DNA from: Diabrotica undecimpunctata
Taxonomy: Eukaryota; Arthropoda; Insecta; Coleoptera; Chrysomelidae
DNA: 64,000 nt
Assembly (NCBI RefSeq): GCF_040954645.1
Contig: NC_092809.1
Coordinates: forward strand, 134,467,914-134,531,913
Direction of reading: 5' to 3'
Part shown: one piece after another, positions 7,709 through 62,682 of the stretch
How positions within the stretch are numbered: the first letter of the stretch is position 1
Layout of the letters: every line of letters begins with the position of its first letter
Made by a program: the position numbers and the translations under genes
The notes under the pieces: generated by a model
Told to the model about the DNA's origin: nothing
The model's input: only the letters and a program-made list of their open reading frames with translations
The model's database searches: none

Positions 7709-9458
7709 CTGAAAACGAACAGTATTAGTTAACTTTCTGTTAGCTTTTTTGCTTTTTTTTTCACATAAATAGTTGCTTGTTTAATCTGTTCAGTTAAAGA
7801 TATTTTATAATTAAAAATTAAATATCAAAGAACAGCCTGGACTTAATTTCTCATTGGCTTAACTTGACTAATTTTCTATAATTAATAAAAACCAATTTTT
7901 GTGCAGTTTTAACCCTTAACTACTGACGTGGATGTTTCAGGACGTAGACTCTGACATGCCGTATGTCATACCGTTGCCTATTCTCCTTTGTTTTTAATAT
8001 GAATTTATCTTATATCACTGTATTTGTTTTTTATATCAACTACGGAATGATTCTTCACATTGCTGTAGCATAATATACTGCTACAAGTAAAATAAACTTT
8101 ACTTTTTCAAGAATATTATGAATGCATGATTAATATTTAAAAAAATGGTGGACGTTACTACAAAATCGTTTATAAACTAAATTACAAGAAAAATTGATTA
8201 CTTGTGACTAGCAAATGGTAAAATAATGTTAAAAGAAACAGACTAATGATTTAAATTTAATGAGAAACTAAAATACAAAATTCTGACAATAACCAAAAAT
8301 TACAATAAAATAACTAGTCATTTTGCGCGCAAGGTCCGCAATTTTTCTTTGTACACTGTAAGCACACTGGTTTTCCACAAGCACACATAAAAAGTCTTTC
8401 ACTTTAATGCACTTGGGCATAAGTAACACGTCTTCTTTTTCTCAAGCCTTTCTTCAAAATCTGCTTCTTTTTGGCGTTTTTGTCCTAGTATTCGTTCAAT
8501 ACCACATAATAATTCTCTCGGAATTCTGGGATTTTCGAGTCTTCTTTGTAGATGAGGTAAAACTAATTGTTTCGCCAACTCCTTTATGTAGTTTAGCCTT
8601 TCCATATTATCTTCTTGTAGTGATTGGTACACAACATGCGAATTAACAGCAGCTATATTAATGATGCGGTAAAAAATAGTAAGTGGCCATCGGCGAGAAC
8701 GACGTTTTACAGAATATTTGGCACACTTGGCATCTAAAGTATCGACACCTCCTTTCGTACGATTATAATGGGCTATAATTTCTGGTTTTCCAGTAATCTG
8801 ATCCGTGCCTATTGAATGGTGCATCGAAGAAATAAGTAAAACAGCCCTCGATTTTTTTGGCACATGGGAAATTCGGGATAAACTTTTCGTAAATCCGTAA
8901 GTAGTTGAATTTACTTGCCTACATCGGTGTGGCTGGAATTCCGGAGGGATTTCCCGTTTATTTTTCTTGAGGGTTCCCACATACGTTAACTTCTTTACTT
9001 CTAACTGCTTTACTAATTCTATAGAACTAAACCAATTATCAGCTGTGATATTACGGTTAGTTCCATAAATAGGTTTAGCAAGCCGAAGAACAGATTGAGT
9101 TGGTTTATTCATCTTCTTTTCTTCCTCAGATAACCCAGTTCCGTCAGTGTCCTTGCCTTCATATATATAGGCATTGTATAAGTAACTTGTTCGTGCATCA
9201 GTCAGGCACATTATTTTAATGCCATATTTCACAGGCTTATTAGGCATATACATTTTAAACCTACACCTTCCCCTAAAGCCGACCAACATTTCATCAATAC
9301 AAACACATGTGCCTACGGAATACAGTTTTTGACAATTTGATATGAGTATATTAAATATGATACTAATGGCTGCTGTTGGATCTATCTTTTTTCTTTCTTC
9401 TCTATCCAGAAGGTTATCAAAACGTAAACATTTTAGAAATATTGCAAATCTTTCTTTT

Positions 9459-10056
<598 letters not shown>

Positions 10057-19021: not shown

Positions 19022-20002
19022 GTGCAGTGCGGAGTAAAAAGCCGCAGAAAAAGCAGAAACAAGCAAAAAACAGGAAAAAACGAACCAACCGCAAGCAAGC
19101 GAGAAAACCAAAAAAACCCAAGCCACCGGCGATTCTTGCACCAGAAAATTCTGCAGAAAACAGCTAATAAAGGAATAATCCCCGTAAATAAGTTTGCAAA
19201 ATCAGGCAGATCCATAGTGATAAGTACTAAAAGCAGAGAGGATTATCTAGGCATGGTTCACATCTTGGAGGAACACACCCCTAAGGTTGAATTCATCGCC
19301 TACCCAATAGACAATGATAAACTGAGAAGAGTTATCATCAAAGGCTTGTCAGCAACCACAAACAAAGACACAATTCTAAACGAATTAATAAACAAAGGTG
19401 TCAACGCTACAAGAGTCATAAATATAATTTCGAAAAAACCCGACAAAAAAATACTCCCACATTTCATACTCACAATTAAAGAGGAAGACTATGCAAAGAT
19501 AAAATCAATAACGGATCTGTGCTGTATACGAAGCTATATAGAAGACGAAATTAAAATAACCAAGGAAACCCTGCAATGTTATAATTGCCAAGGGTATTAC
19601 CATAGCTCTAAGGCTTGCCATTGCGGCTTCAGGTGTGTTAAATGCGGAGAAAGCCATGTAAGTAACGAATGCGAAAAAAGTAGGGAAACAAATCCAATAT
19701 GCGCAAACTGCGATGAAGCTCACACCGAAAATTACCGTGGGTGCTCCAGGGCCCCAAAGAAGAAGACCACTGCCCCCAAAAAACCAGCGGGCAGACCTAT
19801 AAATAGCGCCTCAACTAACAACGGGGTCAGCTACGCTCAAACGACCAAAAAGTCTCCTGAAGTCATCCCAGAAACCCCTGCCCCCTCGCAATCGGTGCAA
19901 GACGCATCGCGAAACAACAAAATGTTGTTTCGCAACAAAGCAACGAAGCAAAATGAAAAATGCAACGAAGATGATGACAGCATTTGGAGAGGCCGCCCGT
20001 AA
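19022..20002 (+). CDS. Jockey-type ORF1 (gag-like nucleic-acid-binding protein)
   Basis: A 326-codon uninterrupted ORF. It has a basic, Lys-rich N-terminus (residues 1-50), then a domain containing KVEFIAYPIDNDKLRRVIIK and PHFILTIKEEDYAKI that resembles the region preceding C2HC knuckles in Jockey gags. Three zinc knuckles follow: CYNCQGYYHSSKAC, CVKCGESHVSNEC and CANCDEAHTENYRGC (about residues 180-240). The tail is Ser/Thr/Pro/Lys-rich. Such proteins coat the element RNA. The open frame is notable because ORF2 of the same copy is broken. It could also start downstream of residue 1, since the Lys-rich leader is low-complexity. Confidence 0.75.
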   Translation: MQCGVKSRRKSRNKQKTGKNEPTASKRENQKNPSHRRFLHQKILQKTANKGIIPVNKFAKSGRSIVISTKSREDYLGMVHILEEHTPKVEFIAYPIDNDKLRRVIIKGLSATTNKDTILNELINKGVNATRVINIISKKPDKKILPHFILTIKEEDYAKIKSITDLCCIRSYIEDEIKITKETLQCYNCQGYYHSSKACHCGFRCVKCGESHVSNECEKSRETNPICANCDEAHTENYRGCSRAPKKKTTAPKKPAGRPINSASTNNGVSYAQTTKKSPEVIPETPAPSQSVQDASRNNKMLFRNKATKQNEKCNEDDDSIWRGRP

Positions 20003-21720
20003 ATGTTAAACGCATAGGGTCGTGGAACTCCAGTAAAATTTTCAGAAAGATCAATTTTCTAGACGAGATCATAAACAGATTAGAACTTGATATCGTAATA
20101 CTTCAAGAAAACAAATTAGTTGAAAGGAAAAAGACAAAATTCCCAGGCTACGATATCTACAGAACGGATCATAGAGCCAACTCAATAGGAACTGCCATCG
20201 TGGTGAAAAAAGAAGTAGAACATCAACATATACCAACACCAGATGGCTTGTTCACAATGAAAGCCACGATCATCCGGCTAATGGACAAAAACGAAACAAT
20301 AAAAATAGTTTCTGCATATGTCAGACCTAATGATCCAATATTTACCGAAGACTTGAGCCTAATACTGAACTCAGAAGAGCCCACAATTATCATAGGCGAC
20401 CTGAATGCGAGATCTCCCAATTGGTTCGACAGGACGACCAATCGTAATGAAAGACTGCTGTGCGGCTATCTCGAAGAAAGATACCCAACACTTACGTAAT
20501 CGGACCAACAGATCCGACATGTTTTCACGGAATACTTTCCACGCATCTCGATATTGCAATCCTATACAACGTGGGTCAACAATATGAAATACATTCATTA
20601 CATGAAGGTGATTCGACGCTCAACCTAATCGTCCTGACCCTGGGTGAGAACATCGCCATTATCCCAACAATTAACAATATAAGAGAGCTCGAAGAAAGCG
20701 TAATAAAACTAGAACAAACAATAACAAATGCCAGCTCCAAAACGGAAACAATCACCACACAGAGAGGAAGATTCAGGGATATCAGCGCAGAGCTCAAAAG
20801 CCTAATCAAAGAAAAAAAACAGAAAAAGAAGAAGAGCGTAGCGCACAAGCACAAGAGAAGACAAAAGCATTGCAAACGAGCTAGACAGGGAAGTGAAAAA
20901 ACAACTTCAAAACCGCAGGAACGAATGCTGGGACTCCTATATCCAAAAGCTAAACCCAAACAAATCCGCGTTTTCGAAATTATCCAAAATTCTCCGAAAA
21001 AAACAAAAAACCAATTCCCCCCTTACACAGGAAAAATGGCATTGTTCACACGAAAAAAGAAAAAGCAGAAGTCATGAAGGACGAATTCGAAAGGGCCTGT
21101 AGCAATAACGAACACCCACACAAAGATCTTCCCAAAGAGGTAGAAAGAATAGCAAGAAGAATAAAAAGAAGAAAGGGCAAAATTACGCATAATGCACATA
21201 TCTCCTGAAGAAATTAAACAACTAATAAAGTTGACAAATGCAAAAAAACCCCAGGACCAGACAATATAACAAACAGAGCTCTGAAAGATCTATCAGCTGA
21301 AGCTACAGTATACATCGCAAACATAATAAACAGTATGCTTAAATTAAGATATTTCCCTGGCAGATGGAAGGACGCTCATGTTATCATAATTGCAAAGCCA
21401 GGGAAAAATGGCACGTTTTCTCAAAACTATAGACTAATCAGCCTACTATCGTCTTTAAGTAAAATAAAGGAAAGAGTCATACTGAAAAGACTCAACAAAG
21501 AATCACAGGCACTAGGCACTATTCCGGAAGCTCAATTCAGGTTTAGAAGCGAACACTCCTGTAAACTACAGGTACTAAGACTTACAGAATTTATAACGAA
21601 ACGATAAAACGAAAAAATTTACACGGCAACAGCATTTCTGGACGTCAGTAAAGCTTTTGGCAGAGTCTGGCACCAAGGACTCCTCTATAAAATGAGCGAT
21701 CTGGGGTACAGCGAGGTGAT
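19984..21720 (+). pseudogene. Jockey-type ORF2 (endonuclease and partial RT), frameshifted
   Basis: It overlaps the ORF1 end by 19 bases. The endonuclease shows LDIVILQENKLVERKKTKFP, YDIYRTDHRANSIGTAIVV, TIKIVSAYVRPND and TIIIGDLNARSPNWFDR, then after a frameshift near 20480 THLDIAIL. The linker is Lys-rich with a probable second frameshift. The RT start at 21335-21607 reads RYFPGRWKDAHVIIIAKPGK and AQFRFRSEHSC. No YADD box is present, so the copy is incapable of reverse transcription. Confidence 0.7.
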
Positions 21721-22331: not shown

Positions 22332-22335
22332 TTAC

Positions 22336-22433
22336 TGTAATGTCTTTTTTTTATTTATAATTATTTATATTTTGTTGTGAATTAGTCATAATATATTTAC
22401 GGTTAGTTTTAGGCCATGATATTTATCGTAACA
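22336..22433 (-). repeat. gypsy 3' LTR (98 bp)
   Basis: On the element strand it begins TGTTACG and ends CATTACA. It is identical to 27902-27999 except for one base (GGTTAGTTTT against GGTTATTTTT). It is preceded by the flanking TTAC and followed internally by the polypurine tract. The pol stop codon lies inside it. Confidence 0.9.
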
Positions 22434-23838
22434 TTGCCCCTCTCTTAAAAGATGGTTCCTCCTGGAATCTTGTCGGGACTGGAACCGGAACGGTTTGCTG
22501 GTATCGGCAACTGGACCCTCTTTTACAACTTCCAGTTGTATAAAAATGACAAGGGACGGTTTTCTCTCCGCACCAGTAACTATGCGGATTGCAACAGACT
22601 AACACCTGGACTTCGGTGTCTTTAAAGATCTCTTCCACCATATTTCGGATAACCCTCCAATCTAATTGGCGGCACTCCAACTTTGGCATGGCTAACTTTT
22701 GCACGTCGGACTCTAGTACGTGCTCTCTCAATTGAAGTAATGCTTCCCATACATCTCGGTAGGTAGGTTGGTCACGGGCAGTGTCTTTTGTTACCAGGTA
22801 GAAAAGGTAACGTGATGCATCTTGGAGTTTCAAGATTTTACCGGGAGCTGGCACTTGGCATTGAAGTTCTGCAACTCGACCAAACTTCCTTCGAAAGACG
22901 GATGCCAACTCTGGTGCGTCTTTGATACTGGCCGGGATGGTAAGGGCCAGCGAGTGGTCATCGGGGAGCGCGAGTAGATCTTGCTTTTCTTCAGTGGTAA
23001 CACCATGTCTTGCTTTACCGGTACCTCCATAGGCACCCATGAATTCCTCAAACGTGAGGTCAGACACATCTTGGACTTGGTTTACTTCCACTTCTTCATC
23101 TACGTCGTGGTCACCTTCGAAAGACGCCAGCCGGTTATGGTGTACTATCATCGGCTTTTCCCTCGGAATCTTGCTTATTCGGTAGATGACATCGTTGATC
23201 TTCTCCATAATGAGGTATGAACCTTCCCAAAACTGCTGCAATTTGGGAGAACAACCTTTTCGCTTCTTGGGATTATACAGCCATACTTTGTCGTTCTTCT
23301 TAAAGCAACCCTTTTCGGCTTGTGTATCGTACCGTTTCTTTATTCGGTCGCTAGCGATCTGAAGGTGGGAACGGACCAACTCATGTACATCGTCCATTCT
23401 TCTTCGTAATTCGATCACATAATCTTCACCTGCTACATCTTCTCCAGGTCGACATCCAAACTCGAGATCACAAGGTAGTCGCATTTCGCGTCCGAATAGG
23501 ACTTTGGCTGGTGTCTGGCCTGTTGATTCGTTAACAGCAGATCTGTAGGCCATTGTGAAGAACGGAAGGTATTGGTCCCAGTCTCGCTGATGATCGGACA
23601 CCATCTTTGTCAAATACTTGCCAACTGTCCTATTCATTCGTTCTACCATACCATCCGATTGCGGATGATACGCGGTAGTTCTTGTTTTCTTCATGCCTAG
23701 TCTATCACATATTCCTTGGAATAGATCGCTTTCGAAGTTCCTGCCTTGGTCACTATGTATCTCCAAAGGCACTCCAAATCGGCTGATATATTCTTGGATC
23801 AACTTATCTGCAACGGAAGTGCGTAAATCTCGACCCAC
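22423..23838 (-). CDS. gypsy pol, 3' part: integrase core plus TARG1-like macro domain and CCCH-like finger
   Basis: A 471-codon frame that continues the integrase after two frameshifts (near 24050 and 23820). The integrase core shows HSDQGRNFES and TTAYHPQSDGMVERMNRT, and the C-terminal integrase segment ends with MIVHHNRLASFEGDH (~residues 230-244). It continues with a non-retroviral domain at residues ~283-417 (22588-22992): LPDDHSLALT, FRRKFGRVAEL, SRYLFYLVTKDTARDQPTY, KLAMPKLECRQLDW and EEIFKDTEVQVLV. This follows the motif order of the TARG1/OARD1 subfamily of macro domains (ADP-ribose binding or hydrolysis), with the KFG Lys and the late Asp retained but the Gly-rich loop altered. Residues 430-448 (CHFYTTGSCKRGSSCRYQQ) resemble a CCCH finger with Gln in place of His. 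The stop is inside the 3' LTR. Confidence 0.88.
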   Translation of the reverse strand: MGRDLRTSVADKLIQEYISRFGVPLEIHSDQGRNFESDLFQGICDRLGMKKTRTTAYHPQSDGMVERMNRTVGKYLTKMVSDHQRDWDQYLPFFTMAYRSAVNESTGQTPAKVLFGREMRLPCDLEFGCRPGEDVAGEDYVIELRRRMDDVHELVRSHLQIASDRIKKRYDTQAEKGCFKKNDKVWLYNPKKRKGCSPKLQQFWEGSYLIMEKINDVIYRISKIPREKPMIVHHNRLASFEGDHDVDEEVEVNQVQDVSDLTFEEFMGAYGGTGKARHGVTTEEKQDLLALPDDHSLALTIPASIKDAPELASVFRRKFGRVAELQCQVPAPGKILKLQDASRYLFYLVTKDTARDQPTYRDVWEALLQLREHVLESDVQKLAMPKLECRQLDWRVIRNMVEEIFKDTEVQVLVCCNPHSYWCGEKTVPCHFYTTGSCKRGSSCRYQQTVPVPVPTRFQEEPSFKRGAMLR

Positions 23839-23953
23839 TTAGTGAAGTAATCCATTACTACCAGCATGTACTTGCCTCCATTTTCACTTTCTGGAAATGG
23901 CCCAGCGATGTCCAAAGCTATTCTTTCAAACGGGCTTCCAACATTATATTGTC

Positions 23954-26900
23954 TCATAGGAGCTCTCCTTTTTCGGTAAGGCCCGTTACTCGTGGCACAA
24001 ATAGTACATTTCTTACACCAGTCTTTACATCGTCGGAACTGTTCATCCAATAAAACCGTTCCCGAATTCGCTGAAGGGTTTTCCTTACACCAAAATGCCC
24101 TCCCGATGGACTGTCGTGTAACTGACGAAGTACTTCGGCTATTCTGCTCTTTGGGATCACCAACTGTCTTCTCTTCTCTGAACCGTCATCATTTTCCAGG
24201 ACTCGTTTGAGCAAGCCATCTTCGATGATAAATGAGTCCCACTGGGCCCAATACGTCTTAACTACTGAGCATAGGTTTGATATTTCCTGCCAAGGTGGTC
24301 GACGGCTTTCCTCTTTCCATTTTCGGATTTTCTGTATAACTGGATCTCTCTCTTGTTCTTCCCTTATCTTAGTAGGCGTCCAGTCGTCGTTGACAATCGT
24401 CGTTCTTAGCACTGCTGCTTCCTTGGATTCCGTTTTGTTGCAGTGGGGACACTCTGCTGGGCATGGCCGTCTGGAAAGAGAATCAGCGTTTCTGTGGCTA
24501 ACTCCGGCTCGGTGCTCAATCTTAAAATCGTATTCTTGGAGTCGTTCGATCCACCTGGCTATCTGACCCTCTGGATTCTTAAACTGCATCAACCACTTAA
24601 GGGCGGCATGGTCGGTTCGGATTAAAAACTTCCTTCCATAGAGGTATTGATAGAAGTGCTCCACTGATTTCACTACTGCCAGAAGTTCTCTTCTCGTGAC
24701 GCAATAATTCCGCTCAGGTTTTGAAAGAACTTTACTAAAATATCCGAGGACTCGTTCCTGTCCTCCTTGAATCTGAGACAGCACTCCTCCAATTCCCACA
24801 TTACTTGCATCTGTATCTAAGATGAACTCTCCTTCTGGCAGTGGATACCCTAAAATTGGTGCTGTTATTAAATGCTTTTTCAAGGTCTCAAAGGCATTTT
24901 GGCAGTCTGTATCCCAGCGGTAATCTCTTGCTTCCTCCGTAAGTCGCGTTAATGGCTTAGCGATATCTGCAAACTTCTTAATAAACCTCCGGTAGTAAGT
25001 ACATAGTCCAAGAAAACTTCTCACTTGATGTTTGTCAGTTGGTTTTGGCCATTCCTTAATGGAATCGATTTTTCCCTTATCCACGGCCACTCCTTCTTTA
25101 CTGACTATATGACCCAGATAATTGACTTTACCTTGAAATAGCTGGCACTTCTTGGGGTTTAACATCAATTGGGCAGCTTTAAGTCGATTAAAAACGTTTT
25201 CTAAATTCTTCAGATGTTCTTCGAATGTCTCCCCCAAGACGATTATGTCATCCAAATAAACCAGGCATGTTTTCCAAGATAACCCTCTCAACACATTTTC
25301 CATAAGCCTCTCAAATGTCGCAGGAGCATTACAGAGTCCAAATGGCATAACGTTGAATTGCCACAATCCAGATCCTGTGGTGAAGGCCGTCTTTTCTTTA
25401 TCTACTGGGTCCATTTCTACCTGCCAGTATCCAGACTTCAAATCCAAAGTAGAAAACAATTTACTTCCAGCCAATGTGTCCAATGTGTCATCGATCCGAG
25501 GCAGAGGATAACTATCTTTCTTGGTAACGTTGTTCAGCAAACGGTAATCCACACAGAACCTCGTCGTTCCGTCTTTCTTCTTAACCAGGACCACCGGAGA
25601 GACCCATGGGCTCGTAGAAGGTTCTATCACCCCGTCTTTCTTCATTTCCTGAACAATCGTTTCAGCTTCCTCTCTTTTCGCCTGTGGTAAACGTCGAGCT
25701 GTTTGACGAATTGGCTTAGCATTACCAGTATCAATTTTATGCTTAACAACGGTAGTTCTTCCCGTCTTTCCTCCTTTCGGTACGAAAATATCACGATACT
25801 GCCGAAGAAATTCCCTTAATTTCCTTTTCTCCATCTGATTTAGAGACTGTCCTGCAACTGCAACCATTTGGTCGAATTTGTCGTTGGAATTATCAGATGT
25901 TGTCGCCTGACGGATTATTGATGTCGCAGGTACACAAGTTCCTAATTTTGTCTCTTTCTTGATGGTCACTGGGTAGTCGTTGACATTGATAAGTCTCACA
26001 GGAATTTCTTTAGCCGAAGTCACCAATTCCTTTCCAATTATGATTCCACGGCCAACCTCATCGTCGTGGTTCCAAGGCTCCATCATAACAGGTGTCCCTT
26101 CGTCTACAATTCCCTGTAGTCGCGCTACTATGATCGTTTTGCTTCTTGCAGGCACGACTGTATCTTCTTTAATGGCTGCTTGCACAGTGTTGTTATTATG
26201 TGGATGAAGAAATACCTCCTCGTTGCCAACTTTGATTACCTTATTCTTAAAATCCAATTGGAATCCATGCATATTCATTACGTCCATTCCTAATATAACA
26301 TCCTCTTCGATGTCAGCAACTATAACAGTATGGACGAACTTTTCTGCTCCAATTCCCAATTGTACCTGGATTTCTCCATGAATGTTGGCATTTTCACCTG
26401 TAGCGGTCCGAAGTCGCAACCTCGTTGGTAACAGTTTCTTTCGGCTGTTTATAACTGTCGGGCGTATAATGGTTCTGGTCGCTCCGGTATCCACCAACAA
26501 CGTATGCTTTTTACCATTTATGTCTCCATCTACATAGACACTATCTTCACGACATTTCAAAGAAGCTATTAGTATAAGAGGGTCTTTGGAAAAGTTCCGG
26601 GTCGAAGCTGCTCCCCTAAAGCCGACTCGTTCTGGTTTTCCTGATGGTGAGTTTCTTGATTTTATGGTCTTCGTTTTCTTGCATGTAATACTTTTCATCA
26701 TATTAACGAGCTGGTCAAGTTTATCTTCATCTCCTTCCTCTTTTACAGTCCTAACTTTACTGCACCCGCCAGAGGCCTGCGTAGCTGACTCGTATTCGAG
26801 GGCGGCGGATAAGACATCAACCAGCGTCTTGTGACGAGCTAATCGTAGTGTTCTCTGCATTTCATGATCACGAAGACCATCAATAAACGTTTGAACGGCC

Positions 26901-27871
26901 AATTTTTCCATCATGTCTTCGGGAGCTGTTGGATAAGCATATCGTACTAATCTGGCAATATCTACCTCATATTCTTGAAGAGCCTCATCTTTCTTCTGTC
27001 GACGATTTTTAAGCTGCGACTGATATACATGCTCCAAATGTTCGTGGCCATATCGCATATTTAACCTCTTCAGTTGTTCGAAATCATCGGTCTCCTCTAC
27101 GGCTATGGTCTGAAGCACATCTAAGGCATCTCCTCGAAGAGCGATAGTCAGGTTTACAGCCTTTTCTTTTTCAGACCATCCATTCGCTCTTGCGGCTGAT
27201 TCGAACTGTTTCATGTAGTTGTTCCATGATGATTTTCCGTCGAAAGTTGGGACTTTAACATGAATAGAACCTCCACTTCCTTTAAATTTCGGCCGTGTCT
27301 CCAACTTACATTTTGTCTCGTCTTCTTTTATCTCCACTGTAATCGGATTGTTACCTCTCTCTGCTGTCCCTGTTTCCTCCATCTTCCTTTCCATCTCTTT
27401 CATCTTTTCTTCGAAGGCCAACATATCGGCAGCAACTTGGTTTTTTAACGAAGATATTCTATCGTCAAGGGCAGACATCTCAGAAGTTACTTTAGAGATT
27501 TCCGAAGAGATGTTAGCCGAAACTTTGCTTTCCAGGGACGAAATCTCGTTAGAAACTTTGTTTTCTAATGACGCAATGTCACCAGAAACTTTAGCTACAT
27601 CGGAAGAAACTTTCGAAATATCGTCAGAAACTTTGTTCTCCAATGATGCGATGTCACCAGAAACTTTGACTACATCACCAGAAACTTTCGAAATCGACGA
27701 GAGGACAGCATCTTCAAATATATAAGTCTCAGGATCTAGTCCTTCTTCTAGCAAAGCGTTCTTTAGTCGTTGGACTAACTCAGCCTTTTTTCCGGTAGAA
27801 GCTAATTCTCTGTCTTCGAGATGTCTTCTTAAATTTGTCACTGTGAGCTCATAAATCGTCGTCATTTTCAC
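23954..27871 (-). CDS. gypsy gag-pol, 5' part: SAP/coiled-coil gag, protease, RT, RNase H
   Basis: A 1305-codon ORF. Residues ~4-45 resemble a SAP DNA-binding motif (LTVTNLRRHLEDRELASTGK). Residues ~55-165 form a coiled coil with internally duplicated units (KVSGDIASLENKVS occurs twice). The capsid-like core starts near residue 205 (VPTFDGKSSWNNYMKQFESA). I see no CCHC knuckle in gag. The protease has LLVDTGATRTII (~457) and the RT FCVDYRLLN (~770) and YLDDIIVLG (~873). RNase H has LDTDASNVGIGGVLSQ (~1023), and the start of the integrase zinc-binding region (SGGHFGVRKTLQRIRERFYW) comes near the end. A frameshift near 24050 moves the rest of the integrase to another frame. Start: the first ATG after the 5' LTR (27871, or 27865 two codons on). 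Confidence 0.92.
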   Translation of the reverse strand: MKMTTIYELTVTNLRRHLEDRELASTGKKAELVQRLKNALLEEGLDPETYIFEDAVLSSISKVSGDVVKVSGDIASLENKVSDDISKVSSDVAKVSGDIASLENKVSNEISSLESKVSANISSEISKVTSEMSALDDRISSLKNQVAADMLAFEEKMKEMERKMEETGTAERGNNPITVEIKEDETKCKLETRPKFKGSGGSIHVKVPTFDGKSSWNNYMKQFESAARANGWSEKEKAVNLTIALRGDALDVLQTIAVEETDDFEQLKRLNMRYGHEHLEHVYQSQLKNRRQKKDEALQEYEVDIARLVRYAYPTAPEDMMEKLAVQTFIDGLRDHEMQRTLRLARHKTLVDVLSAALEYESATQASGGCSKVRTVKEEGDEDKLDQLVNMMKSITCKKTKTIKSRNSPSGKPERVGFRGAASTRNFSKDPLILIASLKCREDSVYVDGDINGKKHTLLVDTGATRTIIRPTVINSRKKLLPTRLRLRTATGENANIHGEIQVQLGIGAEKFVHTVIVADIEEDVILGMDVMNMHGFQLDFKNKVIKVGNEEVFLHPHNNNTVQAAIKEDTVVPARSKTIIVARLQGIVDEGTPVMMEPWNHDDEVGRGIIIGKELVTSAKEIPVRLINVNDYPVTIKKETKLGTCVPATSIIRQATTSDNSNDKFDQMVAVAGQSLNQMEKRKLREFLRQYRDIFVPKGGKTGRTTVVKHKIDTGNAKPIRQTARRLPQAKREEAETIVQEMKKDGVIEPSTSPWVSPVVLVKKKDGTTRFCVDYRLLNNVTKKDSYPLPRIDDTLDTLAGSKLFSTLDLKSGYWQVEMDPVDKEKTAFTTGSGLWQFNVMPFGLCNAPATFERLMENVLRGLSWKTCLVYLDDIIVLGETFEEHLKNLENVFNRLKAAQLMLNPKKCQLFQGKVNYLGHIVSKEGVAVDKGKIDSIKEWPKPTDKHQVRSFLGLCTYYRRFIKKFADIAKPLTRLTEEARDYRWDTDCQNAFETLKKHLITAPILGYPLPEGEFILDTDASNVGIGGVLSQIQGGQERVLGYFSKVLSKPERNYCVTRRELLAVVKSVEHFYQYLYGRKFLIRTDHAALKWLMQFKNPEGQIARWIERLQEYDFKIEHRAGVSHRNADSLSRRPCPAECPHCNKTESKEAAVLRTTIVNDDWTPTKIREEQERDPVIQKIRKWKEESRRPPWQEISNLCSVVKTYWAQWDSFIIEDGLLKRVLENDDGSEKRRQLVIPKSRIAEVLRQLHDSPSGGHFGVRKTLQRIRERFYWMNSSDDVKTGVRNVLFVPRVTGLTEKGELL

Positions 27872-27901: not shown

Positions 27902-27999
27902 TGTAATGTCTTTTTTTTATTTATAATTATTTATATTTTGTTGTGAATTAGTCATAATATATTTACGGTTATTTTTAGGCCATGATATTTATCGTAACA
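27902..27999 (-). repeat. gypsy 5' LTR (98 bp)
   Basis: The partner of 22336-22433, followed on the plus strand by the TTAC duplication. At under 100 bp this is a very short LTR for a full-length gypsy. It must hold the promoter and polyadenylation signals; AATAAAAAAA near its end (element strand) could serve the latter. Confidence 0.9.
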
Positions 28000-28009
28000 T
28001 TACAAACCA

Positions 28010-28193: not shown

Positions 28194-29809
<1,616 letters not shown>

Positions 29810-34490: not shown

Positions 34491-35612
34491 TTTTCAAAGG
34501 TAGACCGGTCCATCTGGCTTTTGTTGATCTAAAGAAAGCATATGACTCAATACCTAGAGTCAAATTATGGGAAGCAATGAATGATCTCGGAATCCGACAA
34601 ACACTAATAAAAGCAGTTAAAGCACTATACAAAGAAAACAAAGTAGCTATTAAATGTGGAAATAAAACCTACAATCCATTTAAGACGACAAAAGGACTTC
34701 TACAAGGCTGTGCTACGTCCCCTACTCTGTTTAAAATATTCTTGGAAAAGACACTCAAACCATGGAGGAGAAAGTGCGAAGGAATGGGCATACCAGTAAG
34801 AGACGAATACCTATACACCTTAAGTTTTGCCGACGATCAAGTAGTCATCGCACAAGATGAAGAAGATCTCAGCTTTATGCTCAGAAAACTAGAAGAAGAA
34901 TATAAAAACAACGGAATGGAAATAAACTTAGAGAAAACCGAATACCTAACAACAGAAAACAAGGATATGAGAAACCTAGAGATAGACGAGGGAAGACAAA
35001 TAAATGGAACAGATAAATTCAAGTATTTAGGAACCATAATATCGAACCAGGGAACAACAGAAGAAGATATAAACAACATACTGAGACAAACAAGAAACTG
35101 TATAAGACAACTAAACTCAGTGTTGTGGGATAAGAACATTACGATAAAGACAAAAAAGAGAATATATAACACCCTGACAAGAAGTATCCTGACATATGGG
35201 TCCGAAAACTGGACAATAAACAAGAGAAATAGAGGTAGAATAAGAGCGGTAGAAATGGAGTTCCTGAGGAGAAGCTGTAGACTTACAAAAAGAGACAGAA
35301 TTGAAAACGCAGAGATTAAGCGGAGAATGGGAGTGCAATCAGACATAAACGACTATATAGAGGAGAATAGACTATCCTGGTACGGCCACGTCAGAAGAGC
35401 GGACAGAGGACGCTGGATAAACAAAATCACAGAATGGAGCCCGATTGGAAGAAGAAAGAGAGGAAGACCCCGAAGGTCATTCAGAGATGAAATCGACGAG
35501 GCTATGGAGAAAAGAACCCTGCGAGATGGAGACTGGAATGACAGGGAAAATTGGAGAAAACGGTTGAGTGAAGGAAGACAGTGAAAACTGTGGAAATCCT
35601 TAGTAGTAGTAG
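34491..35612 (+). mobile_element. 5'-truncated non-LTR insertion inside the mariner-like element
   Basis: An exact 10-bp target duplication TATATTTTCA lies at 34481-34490 and 35613-35622. The 3' end has an (AGT)n tail. Removing it restores the mariner-like reading frame across the junction. Orientation is opposite to the mariner transposase. Confidence 0.9.
34577..35584 (+). CDS. non-LTR reverse transcriptase, C-terminal half, open
   Basis: 335 codons without a stop. The upstream part of the insert is also open in this frame (FVDLKKAYDSIPRVKLWEAM). Motifs: GLLQGCATSPTLFKIFLEK, YTLSFADDQVVIAQDEEDL (catalytic FADD), DKFKYLGTIISNQG, ILTYGSENWTINKRNRG, LSWYGHVRRADRGRW and GRRKRGRPRRSFRDEIDEAM. 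The palm and C-terminal domains are intact, while fingers and endonuclease were lost by 5' truncation. The same family occurs in decayed form at 51709-52512 (minus). The intact frame suggests recent insertion. Confidence 0.85.
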   Translation: MNDLGIRQTLIKAVKALYKENKVAIKCGNKTYNPFKTTKGLLQGCATSPTLFKIFLEKTLKPWRRKCEGMGIPVRDEYLYTLSFADDQVVIAQDEEDLSFMLRKLEEEYKNNGMEINLEKTEYLTTENKDMRNLEIDEGRQINGTDKFKYLGTIISNQGTTEEDINNILRQTRNCIRQLNSVLWDKNITIKTKKRIYNTLTRSILTYGSENWTINKRNRGRIRAVEMEFLRRSCRLTKRDRIENAEIKRRMGVQSDINDYIEENRLSWYGHVRRADRGRWINKITEWSPIGRRKRGRPRRSFRDEIDEAMEKRTLRDGDWNDRENWRKRLSEGRQ

Positions 35613-36883: not shown

Positions 36884-37708
36884 ATGTTAAGAGGTATACA
36901 TGAAAAATTTGTTGAATATAACATACCTATTTACAACTTGTATATCGATTTTAAACAGGCGTTTGATGGAGGAGATCGACAAAAGATGTTAAAGCAACTA
37001 TCTATATTAAGGATACCCAATAAGTTGGTTAAACTTATACGAATAACTCTGGAGGGTTCCAAAGCTATGGTTAGAATAGATGGAGATATGACGCACGCCT
37101 TTGATATTGAAAATGGAGTTAGACAAGGTGATGTCTTATCAACAACACTTTTTAATCTAACTTTAGAAGCTGTTGTTAGAAAACTGGATATAAACGGCTG
37201 TATTAATACAAGATCAATGCAAATATGCGCATATGCGGATGATGCTACCATAATAAGCCGCAACAAAAGGGTATTAAGTGAAAAAGTTATAGAACTGCAA
37301 CGAGAAGCTGCTACGTTTGGTCTATATATAAATGAAAGCAAAACAAAATATATGAAGTGCGCAAAATCGAATGAACATGAGAATCTGAAGGTAGACAACC
37401 ATACCTACAAATATGCCTCCACCTTTCCCTACCTAGGCTCAATAATAAATGACAACAACATCAGTCAAGAAATACAAGCACGGATTCTTAGCGGTTATAA
37501 GTGCTTTTATGCATACCAAGACTCAATGAACAGTAAGTTACTGAATCTTGAGTCTAAGCTTAGAATCTACAAAACAGTAATTAGACCAGTGGTCATATAT
37601 GGATGTGAAACGTGGACCCTCTCAACCACTGATGAAAATCAACTAAGAATATTTGAGCGCAAAATATTAAGGAAGATATTTGGACCAATCCAATTCAGCG
37701 ATGGTTAG
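36884..37708 (+). pseudogene. RTE-like reverse transcriptase, N-terminal piece
   Basis: 274 open codons: NLYIDFKQAFDGGDRQKMLK, GVRQGDVLSTTLFNLTLEAV, MQICAYADDATIISRNKRVL (catalytic YADD), YLGSIINDNNISQEIQARI and VIRPVVIYGCETWTLSTTDE. The stop at 37706-37708 comes shortly before the hAT insertion. Continuation is at 38847-39144. Confidence 0.85.
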
Positions 37709-42033: not shown

Positions 42034-44164
42034 CACGGCGCCAGTGTGATGGGGTATGACATACCTACCCCAGTGATTTTAAAATTAGAGCCAATATTTT
42101 TATCGGTAAATTAGCGTGACAGGCATTTCAGTACCTTTCGTTAAAACCTTGAAGGAGGTCTCGCAGTTGTTGATTTACTTTAGAAGTGAACGCACGCATC
42201 GCTGTTTTGATCCAAACGTCGTTGGGGTATTATATACCCCACCACATAGGTAAGTTAATATATTTATGGTAGTATTATTTGAATTGAGCATTCACATTTT
42301 TATATAATTTCTGTTGAAAGTATTTATTTTTAATGAAAATGTAAAATTTTATACATAAATTATTTATGTTTTTGTTCTAGATTATGGCTTATCGATATGA
42401 ACGGGAGCAGGCGATGCTTCAAGCTTTATGGGACGATTCTCAAGACGATGATGTAGTAATTGGATCTGCAAGCGAGAACGAATCCGACAATGAAGATAAC
42501 AGTAGCCACAACTCTGACAGCGAGGAAGATGCTATTGATTTAGAACAGTCGGTGGCTGATATAGAAATCGAAAATAAACTTTTGGGACAAGGACAGGAGA
42601 GTCAAAAGAAACATTACGTAGGTAAGGACGACACTAAATGGTCTTCAACATGCTTTCCTATAAATGTAAGAATACGCTCAGTAAATATCATTAAGCATTT
42701 ACCAGGTGTAAAACGAAATGCAAAAATGACGAAAACTCCCTTAGAATGTTTTAATTTACTTTTTACACCTAGTATGACGGATGATGTCGTAACTTGGACT
42801 AATATAAAAATAAGAAGGAAGTCCACTTGCTACGATGAAAACCATCAGTATGCAGTTCGCAAAACCAATGCAACTGAAATAAGAGCATTGTTTGGACTAT
42901 TGTACTTGGCTGGGATGTTCAAGTCTGCTCGGCTAAATTTAGAAGATCTTTGGTCTACTGATGGAACCGGAATAAGCTTATTTAGAGAGATGATGTCTTT
43001 ACAACGATTTATTTTTTTGCAGCCTTGTCTACGTTTTGACAATATAGAAAATCGAAAAGAAAGAAAAAAACTTGATAAAATGACTGCAATTAGAGCAATT
43101 TTTGAAAAATTTGTGCAAAATAGCCAAGCGAATACCTTACTATTGATGAAAAGCTGGAGGCATTTAGAGGCCGCTGTGGTTTTCGCCAGTATATGCCAAA
43201 AAAGCCTGCACGATACGGATTAAAGATATTCGCTCTCGTTGATGCAAAATCATATTATGTTTTGAATTTAGAACTATACGTGGGATTGCAGCCAGAGGGA
43301 CCATTTCAATTAAGCAATAAACCTAGCGACGTAGTTCTGCGACTTGTAACTCCGATATCTGGAACCAAACTAAATGTAACATTCGATAATTGGTTCACCA
43401 GTTATGAGCTGATGCTGAAGCTTTTAAAAGATCATCAACTGACGTCTACTTGAACTGTAAGAAAAAACAAAAGGCAAATACCTGAAAGTTTTATAACATC
43501 TAGGAACAGGCCAGTATATTCCTCAAAATTCGGATTTCAAGAGAGTATAATGTTAGTTTCACATGTACCAAAAAAAGGAAAAGTAGTTCTTCTAATGTCA
43601 ACTTTACATCACACTCCTGATATTGACGATAATACTGGCGAAAGTAAGAAACCAGAAATAATTTCTTTTTATAACGCTACAAAATGTGGGGTAGATGTGG
43701 TAGATGAATTTTCGGCTTCATACGATGTTTTACGTAATAGCAAAAAGTGGCTCATTCCAATTTTTTATACGATACTCAACTGTGCAGGTATAAATGCTAG
43801 AGTAATTCATCAACAAAATACTGGCGATTTTCAGTCAAAACGAAGGAAATTTTCGAAATTATTAGCAATACAGTTACTAACAGAATACAAACAAATTCGG
43901 TCTACCAACTTAAGGCTTCCGCGAAATTTACAAGTCCATCCTGAAGGAACTGTAACAAATGATGAAGTGCAATCAGGTAAACGAATGAAAGTAGCCAAAA
44001 GATGTAATGTTTGCCCGAGAAAAAATGACAGAAAGACCTATTATAATTGTGTGATTTGTAAAAAAAGGTATATGTTTAGAGCATTTCAATTTTTTTTTAA
44101 TGTTGGGTATCAGATACCCCACCACACAGGTTTTTACATTTTAGTCTACCACACTGGCGCCGAG
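42034..44164 (+). mobile_element. piggyBac element 2
   Basis: TTAA duplications at 42030-42033 and 44165-44168. The inverted ends are CACGGCGCCAGTGTG and CTCGGCGCCAGTGTG. Several palindromes of the type GGGGTATnnnATACCCC lie near both ends. At 2131 bp it is a typical size, and it contains one transposase gene on the plus strand with two lesions. It ends about 240 bp from the donor of the protease exon at 44407-44557. Confidence 0.93.
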
Positions 44165-44173
44165 TTAACATGA
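42384..44173 (+). pseudogene. piggyBac transposase with one frameshift and one stop
   Basis: The start MAYRYEREQAMLQALWDDSQ is followed by a Ser/Asp/Glu-rich leader. FNLLFTPSMTDDVV, ALFGLLYLAGMFKSARL and DLWSTDGTG are family motifs. A frameshift near 43127 moves the first catalytic-Asp motif (TIDEKLEAFRGRC) out of frame. Frame 2 then gives FDNWFTSYELML. A TGA at 43451-43453 interrupts just before TVRKNKRQIPE. The last part has ATKCGVDVVDEF (third Asp) and a Cys-rich end CNVCPRKNDRKTYYNCVICK. The frame then runs on into the right terminal repeat. Few lesions imply a fairly young copy. Confidence 0.9.
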
Positions 44174-58343: not shown

Positions 58344-60027
58344 AGTATTACATTTTTGAGAATGGTTAAATCAACATGTTTCATCTCTGTTAGCTACTAC
58401 AAACGCAAGTTTTTGTAAGAACAAAAGTTGGGTGTCTCATCAAAATTACTCACGAAAAATAAGCTTGTTTGTAATAAATGATAAAAATGGTCCTCAGATC
58501 CCGGACTATACATTTTTGTACTGTGCCCCTTTTTACGTATATATTATCGTTTTTTAAGTTATTTTGAAAAAAAATTTTTTTTAGAAATTTTCAAAATAGA
58601 CGATACACTTTAATATCACTTTTTTCAAAAATAAAGTATTTTAAAACAGTCAAGCTCCTGCATTTAATAAAGAATATTAGAATAAAAACGATTAATTTTT
58701 ATTCTTGGGGATATTAGGTTAATTGTACTGCCCTGTTTTCCTTAAAATATTTGAAGAGTCCGTCTTTTACGAGCTGTAACCTACTCAGCTTACATGCAAA
58801 TGACTTTTTGTAGTACTTATTTTAAAGGTCTGTTTATGGGCTATAAAAAACTTTTATATTATTACCCCCGAACAACCAACCATTTTTTACAATTTAACTT
58901 TAAATACATTGATCGAAATATTCGAAAAAAAAAATATCTTCTTTCACCGACCATATCCCACTGTGTATTGTATCTAGAATATCTTTTAAAGATATATTTC
59001 ATTCTTCTTTATAAGCTTTATTTTGTTTTGCAAGCTTTTTTAATTAAAGCATCTTTTAAAAAACCGTTAAAAAACGAGTTTTTTTTTTAATGAAAATTCG
59101 CTATTTTCAATCATAAATAGCTCAAACTGTATTGAATTTCTAAAAAACTGTATGGAACAAAAGTTGCCTAGAATTTAATCCTCCATCGATTCCCTTGATT
59201 ATTTTGTGCAAAAAAGGTGGAACCACCCATGGGGCGGAAGCACACATCGGCATTATATAACTTTTGCTATTTAAGCACTTTCCCATTAACGCACTTGAAT
59301 GCCCGATAAAATTGAGAGGTGAATAATCCGAGTGACTGGATTATTTAGGCAGTGTGGGTGGCCAGTTCTATCCCTCCGGAATGCCTAGCATCTATTTTTG
59401 GCCATTTTGTATCTTTTTTTATGTTAGGACGTGATCTGTATATTTATCAGTTTCTGCTTTCCTTAAAAATATGTTGTCTTAATATGTAATTAAATTCTTT
59501 TGGAAAAGTCTATTTAGCATTTTCCAATATCTGACTTCTCGTCGTGCTTACTGTACATCCCTATTAAATTCAATATATTTTACCTTCCGCTCACGCGTAT
59601 ACTTATTTTTTAAAACTTTTTTGCCAATCTTATGTAACATATTCTTCCTGAAATAGTTTTAAATACTATTATTACATGTTTAAATGCTTAGTTGCTATAA
59701 CTCTTAGAGCGTTACTCAATCTCATTTGCATTTTCTACATTTTTTTACCTAATGATCTAGTGATCTCTCTTCATTTATTCCTTTTATGGTCTTTGATCCC
59801 TGTAATATTTTGCTTCGACTTTTATTTTTTTTTTAAGTAAATACTTCTTATCGCTCAGTATGGTGTTTTGCACGGGTACGAAATCCTATTTAGCGTGACT
59901 CAAATAATCGAGACGCACGTAGTAACCTTGCGGTCATGTTATATACTAAACTCGGGATGACTGGATCGCTTTGGCTTATTCTGATTTTAAAGTATTTGTA
60001 TGCGTTATAATAAAATTATACAAATTT
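58344..60027. other. intronic, nothing recognised
   Basis: T-rich and A-rich stretches with short ORFs that show no domain. There are no repeat boundaries that I can support. Confidence 0.45.
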
Positions 60028-62255
60028 TAAAAATAAAATAAAATAATACAAAATAAAATAAAATAAAATAAAATAAAATAAAATAAAATGAAATGAAATG
60101 AAATGAAATGAAATGAAATGAAATGAAATGAAATGAAATGAAATGAAATGAAATGAAATGAAATGAAATGAAATGAAATGAAATGAAATGAAATGAAATG
60201 AAATGAAATGAAATGAAATGAAATGAAATGAAATGAAATGAAATGAAATGAAATGAAATGAAATGAAATGAAATGAAATGAAATGAAATGAAATGAAATG
60301 AAATGAAATGAAATGAAATGAAATGAAATGAAATGAAATGAAATGAAATGAAATGAAATGAAATGAAATGAAATGAAATGAAATGAAATGAAATGAAATG
60401 AAATGAAATGAAATGAAATGAAATGAAATGAAATGAAATGAAATGAAATGAAATGAAATGAAATGAAATGAAATGAAATGAAATGAAATGAAATGAAATG
60501 AAATGAAATGAAATGAAATGAAATGAAATGAAATGAAATGAAATGAAATGAAATGAAATGAAATGAAATGAAATGAAATGAAATGAAATGAAATGAAATG
60601 AAATGAAATGAAATGAAATGAAATGAAATGAAATGAAATGAAATGAAATGAAATGAAATGAAATGAAATGAAATGAAATGAAATGAAATGAAATGAAATG
60701 AAATGAAATGAAATGAAATGAAATGAAATGAAATGAAATGAAATGAAATGAAATGAAATGAAATGAAATGAAATGAAATGAAATGAAATGAAATGAAATG
60801 AAATGAAATGAAATGAAATGAAATGAAATGAAATGAAATGAAATGAAATGAAATGAAATGAAATGAAATGAAATGAAATGAAATGAAATGAAATGAAATG
60901 GAATGGAATGGAATAGACTAGAATAGAATAGAATAGAATAGAATAGAATAGAATAGAATAGAATAGAATAGAATAGAATAGAATAGAATAGAATAGAATA
61001 GAATAGAAGAGAATAGAATAGAATAGAATAGAATAGAATAGAATAGAATAGAATAGAATAGAATAGAATAGAATAGAATAGAATAGAATAGAATAGAATA
61101 GAATAGAATAGAATAGAATAGAATAGAATAGAATAGAATAGAATAGAATAGAATAGAATAGAATAGAATAGAATAGAATAGAATAGAATAGAATAGAATA
61201 GAATAGAATAGAATAGAATAGAATAGAATAGAATAGAATAGAATAGAATAGAATAGAATAGAATAGAATAGAATAGAATAGAATAGAATAGAATAGAATA
61301 GAATAGAATAGAATAGAATAGAATAGAATAGAATAGAATAGAATAGAATAGAATAGAATAGAATAGAATAGAATAGAATAGAATAGAATAGAATAGAATA
61401 GAATAGAATAGAATAGAATAGAATAGAATAGAATAGAATAGAATAGAATAGAATAGAATAGAATAGAATAGAATAGAATAGAATAGAATAGAATAGAATA
61501 GAATAGAATAGAATAGAATAGAATAGAATAGAATAGAATAGAATAGAATAGAATAGAATAGAATAGAATAGAATAGAATAGAATAGAATAGAATAGAATA
61601 GAATAGAATAGAATAGAATAGAATAGAATAGAATAGAATAGAATAGAATAGAATAGAATAGAATAGAATAGAATAGAATAGAATAGAATAGAATAGAATA
61701 GAATAGAATAGAATAGAATAGAATAGAATAGAATAGAATAGAATAGAATAGAATAGAATAGAATAGAATAGAATAGAATAGAATAGAATAGAATAGAATA
61801 GAATAGAATAGAATAGAATAGAATAGAATAGAATAGAATAGAATAGAATAGAATAGAATAGAATAGAATAGAATAGAATAGAATAGAATAGAATAGAATA
61901 GAATAGAATAGAATAGAATAGAATAGAATAGAATAGAATAGAATAGAATAGAATAGAATAGAATAGAATAGAATAGAATAGAATAGAATAGAATAGAATA
62001 GAATAGAATAGAATAGAATAGAATAGAATAGAATAGAATAGAATAGAATAGAATAGAATAGAATAAATAAAATAAAATAAAATAAAATAAAATAAAATAA
62101 AATAAAATAAAATAAAATAAAATAAAATAAAATAAAATAAAATAAAATAAAATAAAATAAAATAAAATAAAATAAAATAAATAAAATAAAATAATATAAA
62201 AATAAAATAAAATAAAATAAAATAAACAAACACAATAAAATAAAATAGAATAAAA
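60028..62255. repeat. 2.2-kb pentanucleotide satellite in four blocks
   Basis: Block order on the plus strand: (AAATA)n to about 60085; (AAATG)n to 60900, about 163 units; a two- to three-unit GAATG transition; (GAATA)n from 60911 to about 62065, about 230 units; then (AAATA)n to about 62230. Neighbouring blocks differ by one A/G transition per unit. Within blocks the array is almost perfect (one AGAAG variant near 61008). A short (AAATT)n lies just beyond. Open frames of up to 742 codons here are artefacts of a stop-free repeat. Confidence 0.97.
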
Positions 62256-62682
62256 CAAAATAAATTAAATTAAATTAAATTAATGTTTTAAACAAAAAAA
62301 ATTAAGATTTTTTAAATTTCAAAGAACTAAAAGTGCCGTTTTTTTAAATCTTTTCTCTTTTTCAGCCTTTTCTCTTTATTTTATAATCATGTAGCTTTTC
62401 GCTGAGAGATTATTAAAGTAGTTGTTTTTTAAATGTTTCTTTATTATTTATTGCTACCTGTTTTTTCACTTTATATTATGTTGGCCCTTCGTTAAATTTT
62501 CCTTTAGGTTTTCATTTCCAGTAATTGCAAGATTTTGCAATACCGATTTTATAAACTTAAATCAAAAAGTTTTAGAAATTGAAAATAAGCGGCAAAAACA
62601 ATGATAAACAGAATAAGCAACAACGTTGGACAATTAAATAATGCCTCAATAAACGTAGAAGGAAAAAAACATAAATACTTAC
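62256..62682. other. intron sequence between satellite and first coding exon
   Basis: AT-rich. Includes the donor GTAAGT of the exon at 62683-62902 at its right edge. Confidence 0.5.

What the first reader, a model, noticed from the sequence alone, without database searches (positions are those of the whole stretch)
22588..22992. TARG1-like macro domain fused to the integrase end of a Ty3/gypsy pol
Seen: after the integrase the same frame continues for about 135 residues with the motif order of the TARG1/OARD1 macro subfamily (FRRKFGRVAEL; RYLFYLVTKDTARDQPTY; AMPKLECRQLDW; EEIFKDTEVQV). The nucleophile-type Lys next to FG and the late Asp are kept. Known: this subfamily removes ADP-ribose from Glu/Asp, and macro domains in some RNA viruses counter host ADP-ribosylation. 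Inference: the retrotransposon captured a host ADP-ribose hydrolase, perhaps to resist PARP-based defence or edit ADP-ribosylated integration factors. I do not recall a described gypsy group with this architecture, but I cannot exclude one.
Basis: partly seen in the sequence, partly recalled or inferred. Interest (0 to 1): 0.88.

Follow-up and report, generated by a model that had tools for sequence, protein, structure and literature searches.

The report
Retrotransposon carrying an ADP-ribose-hydrolase domain
A lineage of insect jumping genes has attached a copy of an ADP-ribose-removing enzyme to the end of its integrase; most relatives examined keep the enzyme's two key residues, but the branch that is very abundant in this beetle genome has lost one of them.

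Summary
The macro domain is real. It lies on the minus strand (22588-23007), after the integrase of a Ty3/gypsy element with paired LTRs and a 4-bp target duplication. It matches human TARG1 by sequence (E 4.5e-22) and predicted fold (TM 0.92). A CCCH-type zinc finger follows.

It is not a one-off. In this 1.74-Gb genome 150 of 150 scored matches (5974 first-look candidates) are 98-100% identical without stops. Of 120 listed pol relatives, 18 end in a whole macro domain and one in a partial one, in one clade. Named hosts are mostly beetles, plus a leafhopper and two probably contaminated records.

TARG1's Lys84 is kept in 22 of 23 retroelement domains; Asp125 in 18 of 23, but not in the window's branch.

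I read this as one old capture of a TARG1-type gene, probably an integrase-tethered ADP-ribose hydrolase, later non-catalytic in the window's lineage. My searches found no description of such a gypsy element; fish endogenous retroviruses with macro ORFs are the nearest precedent. Activity is untested.

The parts
27902..27999 (-). 5' LTR, 98 bp (TGTTACG...ATTACA); target duplication GTAA at 28000-28003
   Evidence: one mismatch to the 3' LTR
23954..27871 (-). gag-pol frame, 1305 aa: SAP, gag, aspartic protease, reverse transcriptase, RNase H, H2C2 integrase zinc finger
26273..26533 (-). aspartic protease (gag-asp_proteas, E 5.1e-11)
25103..25585 (-). reverse transcriptase (RVT_1, E 1.9e-38)
24530..24916 (-). 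RNase H region (RT_RNaseH and RT_RNaseH_2)
23799..24050 (-). 83-aa frame with part of the integrase; shows that this copy changes frame in the integrase region
22423..23838 (-). 471-aa frame: rest of the integrase core, Integrase_p58_C (23125-23217), macro domain, CCCH-type finger; its stop lies inside the 3' LTR
22588..23007 (-). TARG1-like macro domain; Lys84 equivalent kept, Asp125 lost
22501..22563 (-). CCCH-type zinc finger (PF00642, E 8.7e-6); in this copy the last ligand position is not His
   Evidence: weak match to CPSF4 fingers, E 0.002; copies compared by eye
22336..22433 (-). 3' LTR, 98 bp; target duplication GTAA at 22332-22335; a purine-rich stretch (AAGAGAGGGG) lies just upstream and is itself coding

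Best explanation
An insect Ty3/gypsy lineage once acquired a TARG1/OARD1-type macro domain and placed it in frame after its integrase, in many members followed by a CCCH-type finger, so that it is made as the last part of the Pol polyprotein (shown by sequence). In most lineages the Lys84/Asp125 dyad and the pocket are conserved, so the domain probably removes ADP-ribose while tethered to integrase. The likeliest substrates are the element's own integrase or cDNA ends, or host chromatin proteins that ADP-ribosylating host enzymes use to silence or repair around retroelements (inference). In the branch that includes the window, Asp125 and part of the diphosphate loop were lost. There the domain most likely works without hydrolysis, as an integrase-borne binding or targeting module together with the finger, much as chromodomains do on chromovirus integrases (inference).
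For: Match and fold to TARG1. A relative with an intact dyad (P0138; dyad read by eye) fits TARG1 better still: TM 0.95, 42% identity. Of four relatives scanned, two pass Pfam's Macro cut-off (P0010, P0029). 18 whole and 1 partial macro domains among 120 listed pols, all inside one 26-row clade with local support 100. 27 retroelement macro domains form one group against 14 OARD1 proteins, 100/100. Lys84 kept in 22 of 23 and Asp125 in 18 of 23; the five without Asp125 are one branch. 150 of 150 scored own-genome matches open and 98-100% identical. 12 of 13 sampled copies had LTR pairs, 9 of the 12 identical. Literature: TARG1's dyad (passages of PMC7050489 and PMC9411070); SIRT6 silences L1 through mono-ADP-ribosylation of KAP1 (passage of PMC4695847).
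Against: No activity or binding was measured. The macro domain evolves faster than the core (mean pairwise identity 0.50 against 0.76 RT, 0.79 RNase H, 0.73 integrase). It looks secondarily lost in P0023 and possibly in P0016 and P0026, so it is not always needed. Seven of 23 rows have no CCCH finger (by eye). Of four relatives scanned, P0003 stays below Pfam's Macro cut-off and P0021 has no Macro match. No dN/dS could be done: the own-genome matches were ranked by protein similarity. No insect host OARD1 was in hand, so the donor and the number of captures are not fully settled. In the window's branch the equivalents of Cys33 and Asp37 are also changed in several members, so even ADP-ribose binding is doubtful there.
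Confidence: 0.6

Rival explanations
1. Counter-defence: the captured hydrolase exists mainly to undo PARP- or Sirt6-type ADP-ribosylation that silences or blocks the element, as viral macro domains counter host ADP-ribosylation.
For: Intact dyad in 18 of 23. SIRT6-KAP1 silencing of L1 is described (passage of PMC4695847). Viral proteins with this fold include Kadipiro virus VP8 (38% identity; I recall it as insect-borne) and a thrips flavi-like virus (32%). The domain evolves faster than the core, as arms-race parts often do.
Against: The window's very abundant branch has lost the dyad, and sampled copies of it are recent. No target is known. Some relatives appear to have lost the domain.
Confidence: 0.35
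2. Targeting module: the domain and the CCCH-type finger read ADP-ribosylated chromatin, breaks or nucleic acid and steer integration, like the chromodomain at the end of chromovirus integrases; catalysis is optional.
For: Position directly after the integrase C-terminal domain. Persistence after loss of the catalytic Asp in a branch with nearly identical LTR pairs in sampled copies.
Against: In the window's branch the ADP-ribose pocket itself is eroded. Seven of 23 rows lack the finger (by eye). Insertion-site preference was not analysed.
Confidence: 0.35
3. Passenger: a neutral captured fragment without function.
For: Faster evolution than the core. Probable secondary losses.
Against: Open and recognisable across the clade at about 50% mean identity, with 18 of 23 keeping Asp125 and 22 of 23 Lys84. 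Open in 150 of 150 scored copies, though these were selected as the best matches.
Confidence: 0.1
4. Assembly chimera or chance insertion next to a host OARD1 gene.
For: None found.
Against: The domain is inside the element, its frame ends in the 3' LTR, and it is repeated across contigs C1-C7 and in other species.
Confidence: 0.01

Closest known systems
TARG1/OARD1/C6orf130 (terminal ADP-ribose glycohydrolase; ALC1-like macro class)
   Same: Closest sequence and fold; the Lys84/Asp125 dyad is present in 18 of 23 retroelement domains.
   Different: Stand-alone host enzyme of about 152 aa; here the last part of a retroelement polyprotein. The window's branch lacks Asp125.
DarG and SCO6735 (bacterial ALC1-like macrodomains)
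   Different: Bacterial; DarG is the antitoxin for DNA ADP-ribosylation. Only 19-24% identity to the window's domain.
Fish epsilon-like endogenous retroviruses with macro-domain ORFs (Basta et al. 2009, as cited in PMC4977317)
   Same: Retroelements that carry a macro-domain gene (one passage).
   Different: Described there as additional open reading frames in retroviruses; here an in-frame extension of gypsy Pol in insects. I did not read Basta et al.
Chromoviruses (Ty3/gypsy with a chromodomain at the integrase end)
   Same: Extra chromatin-type domain at the integrase C-terminus (recalled, not from a call).
   Different: Different domain; no chromodomain match here.

Membership tests
Ty3/gypsy LTR retrotransposon (Metaviridae) | Order protease - RT - RNase H - integrase | tested here: met
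Ty3/gypsy LTR retrotransposon (Metaviridae) | Paired LTRs and short target duplication | tested here: met
   98-bp LTRs, GTAA; 12 of 13 other copies with LTR pairs; 4-bp duplications read by eye in those 12
TARG1/OARD1 macro domain | Macro fold and closest similarity to TARG1 | tested here: met
   the window's copy does not reach Pfam's Macro model; of four relatives scanned P0010 and P0029 do, P0003 is below the cut-off and P0021 has no match
TARG1/OARD1 macro domain | Catalytic Lys84 | tested here: met
   window K; 22 of 23 retroelement rows
TARG1/OARD1 macro domain | Catalytic Asp125 in the GCGLD loop | tested here: not met
   absent in the window and 4 relatives, present in 18 of 23
TARG1/OARD1 macro domain | Removal of ADP-ribose from substrates | not testable with these tools
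   needs purified protein
Chromovirus | Chromodomain at the integrase end | tested here: not met
   no chromodomain match at E 1 in the 471-aa frame

The most novel reading that the evidence does not exclude
A clade of insect retrotransposons brings its own ADP-ribosyl hydrolase into the nucleus as part of its integrase polyprotein, and uses it on the incoming DNA, the integrase or the target chromatin to evade ADP-ribosylation-based silencing. One branch then turned the enzyme into a non-catalytic reader or tether and went on to multiply.
Probability: 0.4. Interest if true: 0.9.

Novelty: new variant of a known kind. Interest (0 to 1): 0.73.

Why it matters
ADP-ribose removal is known as a counter-defence of RNA viruses and as part of DNA repair. 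A retrotransposon lineage that keeps an ADP-ribose hydrolase on its integrase would make the role of ADP-ribosylation in transposon silencing and integration directly testable in insects. The branch that lost the active site is a natural experiment on whether binding alone is enough. It also warns that some insect genes named 'OARD1-like' are probably pieces of transposons.

Full report

Anatomy. The element runs from 27999 down to 22336 between 98-bp LTRs with one mismatch and a GTAA duplication. The gag-pol frame has SAP, gag, protease, RT, RNase H and H2C2 matches. This copy changes frame in the integrase region: three frames (27871-23954, 24050-23799, 23838-22423) share the integrase. The macro-bearing frame ends inside the 3' LTR, and a purine-rich stretch just before the LTR is part of the coding sequence, so the extension fills the space between integrase and LTR. 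The finger still matches PF00642, but its last ligand position is not His in this copy and in its duplicate L002; it is His in six other copies, L003-L008 (by eye). By eye, 16 of 23 rows (the window included) have the finger and seven do not.

The family in this genome. The window lies in an assembly of 1.743 Gb. A search with the 206 residues had 5974 first-look candidates. Of these the best 150 were scored, and 150 of 150 are 98-100% identical, without stops. Sixty of the 150 lie in open frames of at least 1779 aa and 55 in frames of 1400-1430 aa (from the column; I did not read those frames). Of 13 copies examined at both ends, 12 have LTR pairs of 312-442 bp: nine identical, two with one mismatch, one with four. 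By eye all 12 have 4-bp target duplications. One copy, L004, showed no pair. L002 shares the window's flank and so looks like a duplicate of this locus. These copies come from the best matches, so they say that some are very recent, not that all are.

Relatives. A search with the last 210 residues gave six proteins, from Diabrotica virgifera (89% identity, and a partial one), Psylliodes, Aromia moschata and two unnamed sources. A search with protease-RT-RNase H-integrase listed 120 of 4905 relatives. Of those 120, 18 end in a whole macro domain and one (P0012) in a cut-off one. A FastTree of the RT region (121 rows) puts the 19 and the window in one group of 26 rows with local support 100. The six rows without the domain in that group are three that stop before the integrase end (P0024, P0027, P0034), two that stop 13-19 residues after the integrase motif (P0016, P0026), and one that keeps the later tail but not the domain (P0023). 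The simplest reading is one gain with at least one later loss. Other named hosts are Callosobruchus (P0031), and Pyrocoelia and Macrosteles. P0010 is filed under Klebsiella and P0029 under a powdery mildew, which I take to be contaminated records (inference).

Residues. In 23 retroelement domains with both sites readable, Lys84 is kept in 22 (P0009 has Arg) and Asp125 in 18. The five without Asp125 (window, P0001, P0002, P0007, P0009) form one branch in the macro tree (100/98). The window, P0001, P0002 and P0007 have a two-residue gap in the phosphate loop; P0009 has substitutions there. The window also differs at the equivalents of His32, Cys33, Asp37 and Gly43; another own-genome copy, L005, keeps the Gly. 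The dyad of TARG1 and DarG's Lys without it are described in the passages that I read (PMC9411070; PMC7050489, which writes Glu125). By that comparison the window's domain is unlikely to be a TARG1-like hydrolase; I put this at about one in ten.

Constraint. Mean pairwise identity over 19 rows is 0.76 for RT, 0.79 for RNase H, 0.73 for integrase and 0.50 for the macro domain. The macro/RT distance ratio has a median of 2.4 for 120 pairs with the dyad, 2.8 for 48 mixed pairs and 3.0 for the three pairs without it. The domain is conserved but evolves faster than the core. A proper dN/dS was not possible.

Origin. Twenty-seven retroelement domains and 14 OARD1 proteins (vertebrates and a mussel) separate at 100/100. 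No insect host OARD1 was available, so the donor is open and a second capture cannot be excluded. Two leafhopper proteins named OARD1-like fall inside the retroelement group.

Mechanism. Shown: position, fold, residues, abundance. Inferred: hydrolase activity in dyad-intact lineages; action on integrase, cDNA ends or chromatin; a non-catalytic role in the window's branch. Background for an ADP-ribose-based control of retroelements: SIRT6 represses L1 through KAP1 mono-ADP-ribosylation (passage of PMC4695847). Viral structures that resemble P0138 include Kadipiro virus VP8 and thrips-associated virus proteins, so viruses of insects carry domains of this fold too.

Novelty. Full-text searches for macro domain or OARD1/TARG1/A1pp with retrotransposon or gypsy terms found no description of this architecture (open-licence papers only, listings seen; one search listed 20 of 434 and 26 of 27). 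The nearest precedent is a sentence on fish epsilon-like endogenous retroviruses with macro-domain ORFs (PMC4977317, passage). A paper on Diabrotica genome size notes that gypsy elements contribute to it and gives 1.56-1.64 Gb for the fucata group (PMC8982398, passages). The window's assembly size and its 89% match to D. virgifera fit a relative in or near that group (inference).

Noticed in passing
28615-29523 (-) with flanks near 28270 and 29680: Tc1/mariner-type transposase (DDE_3, HTH_Tnp_Tc3_2) just beside the gypsy element, with matching inverted ends next to AT repeats (by eye in the sequences).
   Followed up: partly
8399-9463 (-), 42384-43223 (+), 43550-44173 (+): Transposase pieces of the DDE_Tnp_1_7 family, which I recall as piggyBac-type.
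   Followed up: partly
19984-20499 (+), 34577-35584 (+), 36884-37708 (+): An endonuclease frame as in non-LTR elements and two reverse transcriptase frames.
   Followed up: partly
60005-62258 (-): Three long overlapping frames on one strand (742, 739, 446 aa), which suggests a tandem repeat; the two scanned (742 and 446 aa) have no Pfam match at E 0.001.
   Followed up: partly
own-genome copies: 55 of 150 scored copies share an open frame of 1400-1430 aa instead of about 1800, perhaps a spreading subfamily with a break near gag.
   Followed up: no
window LTRs 22336-22433 and 27902-27999; L003-L008, L051-L070: The window copy has 98-bp LTRs whereas 12 sampled copies have 312-442 bp that differ in their middle part, so LTRs seem to change fast in this family.
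   Followed up: partly
P0128, P0137 (Macrosteles): Leafhopper proteins named OARD1-like group with the retroelement domains, so they are probably transposon pieces.
   Followed up: partly
Domains of this fold in viral proteins linked to insects: Kadipiro virus VP8 (38% identity) and a thrips flavi-like virus (32%).
   Followed up: no
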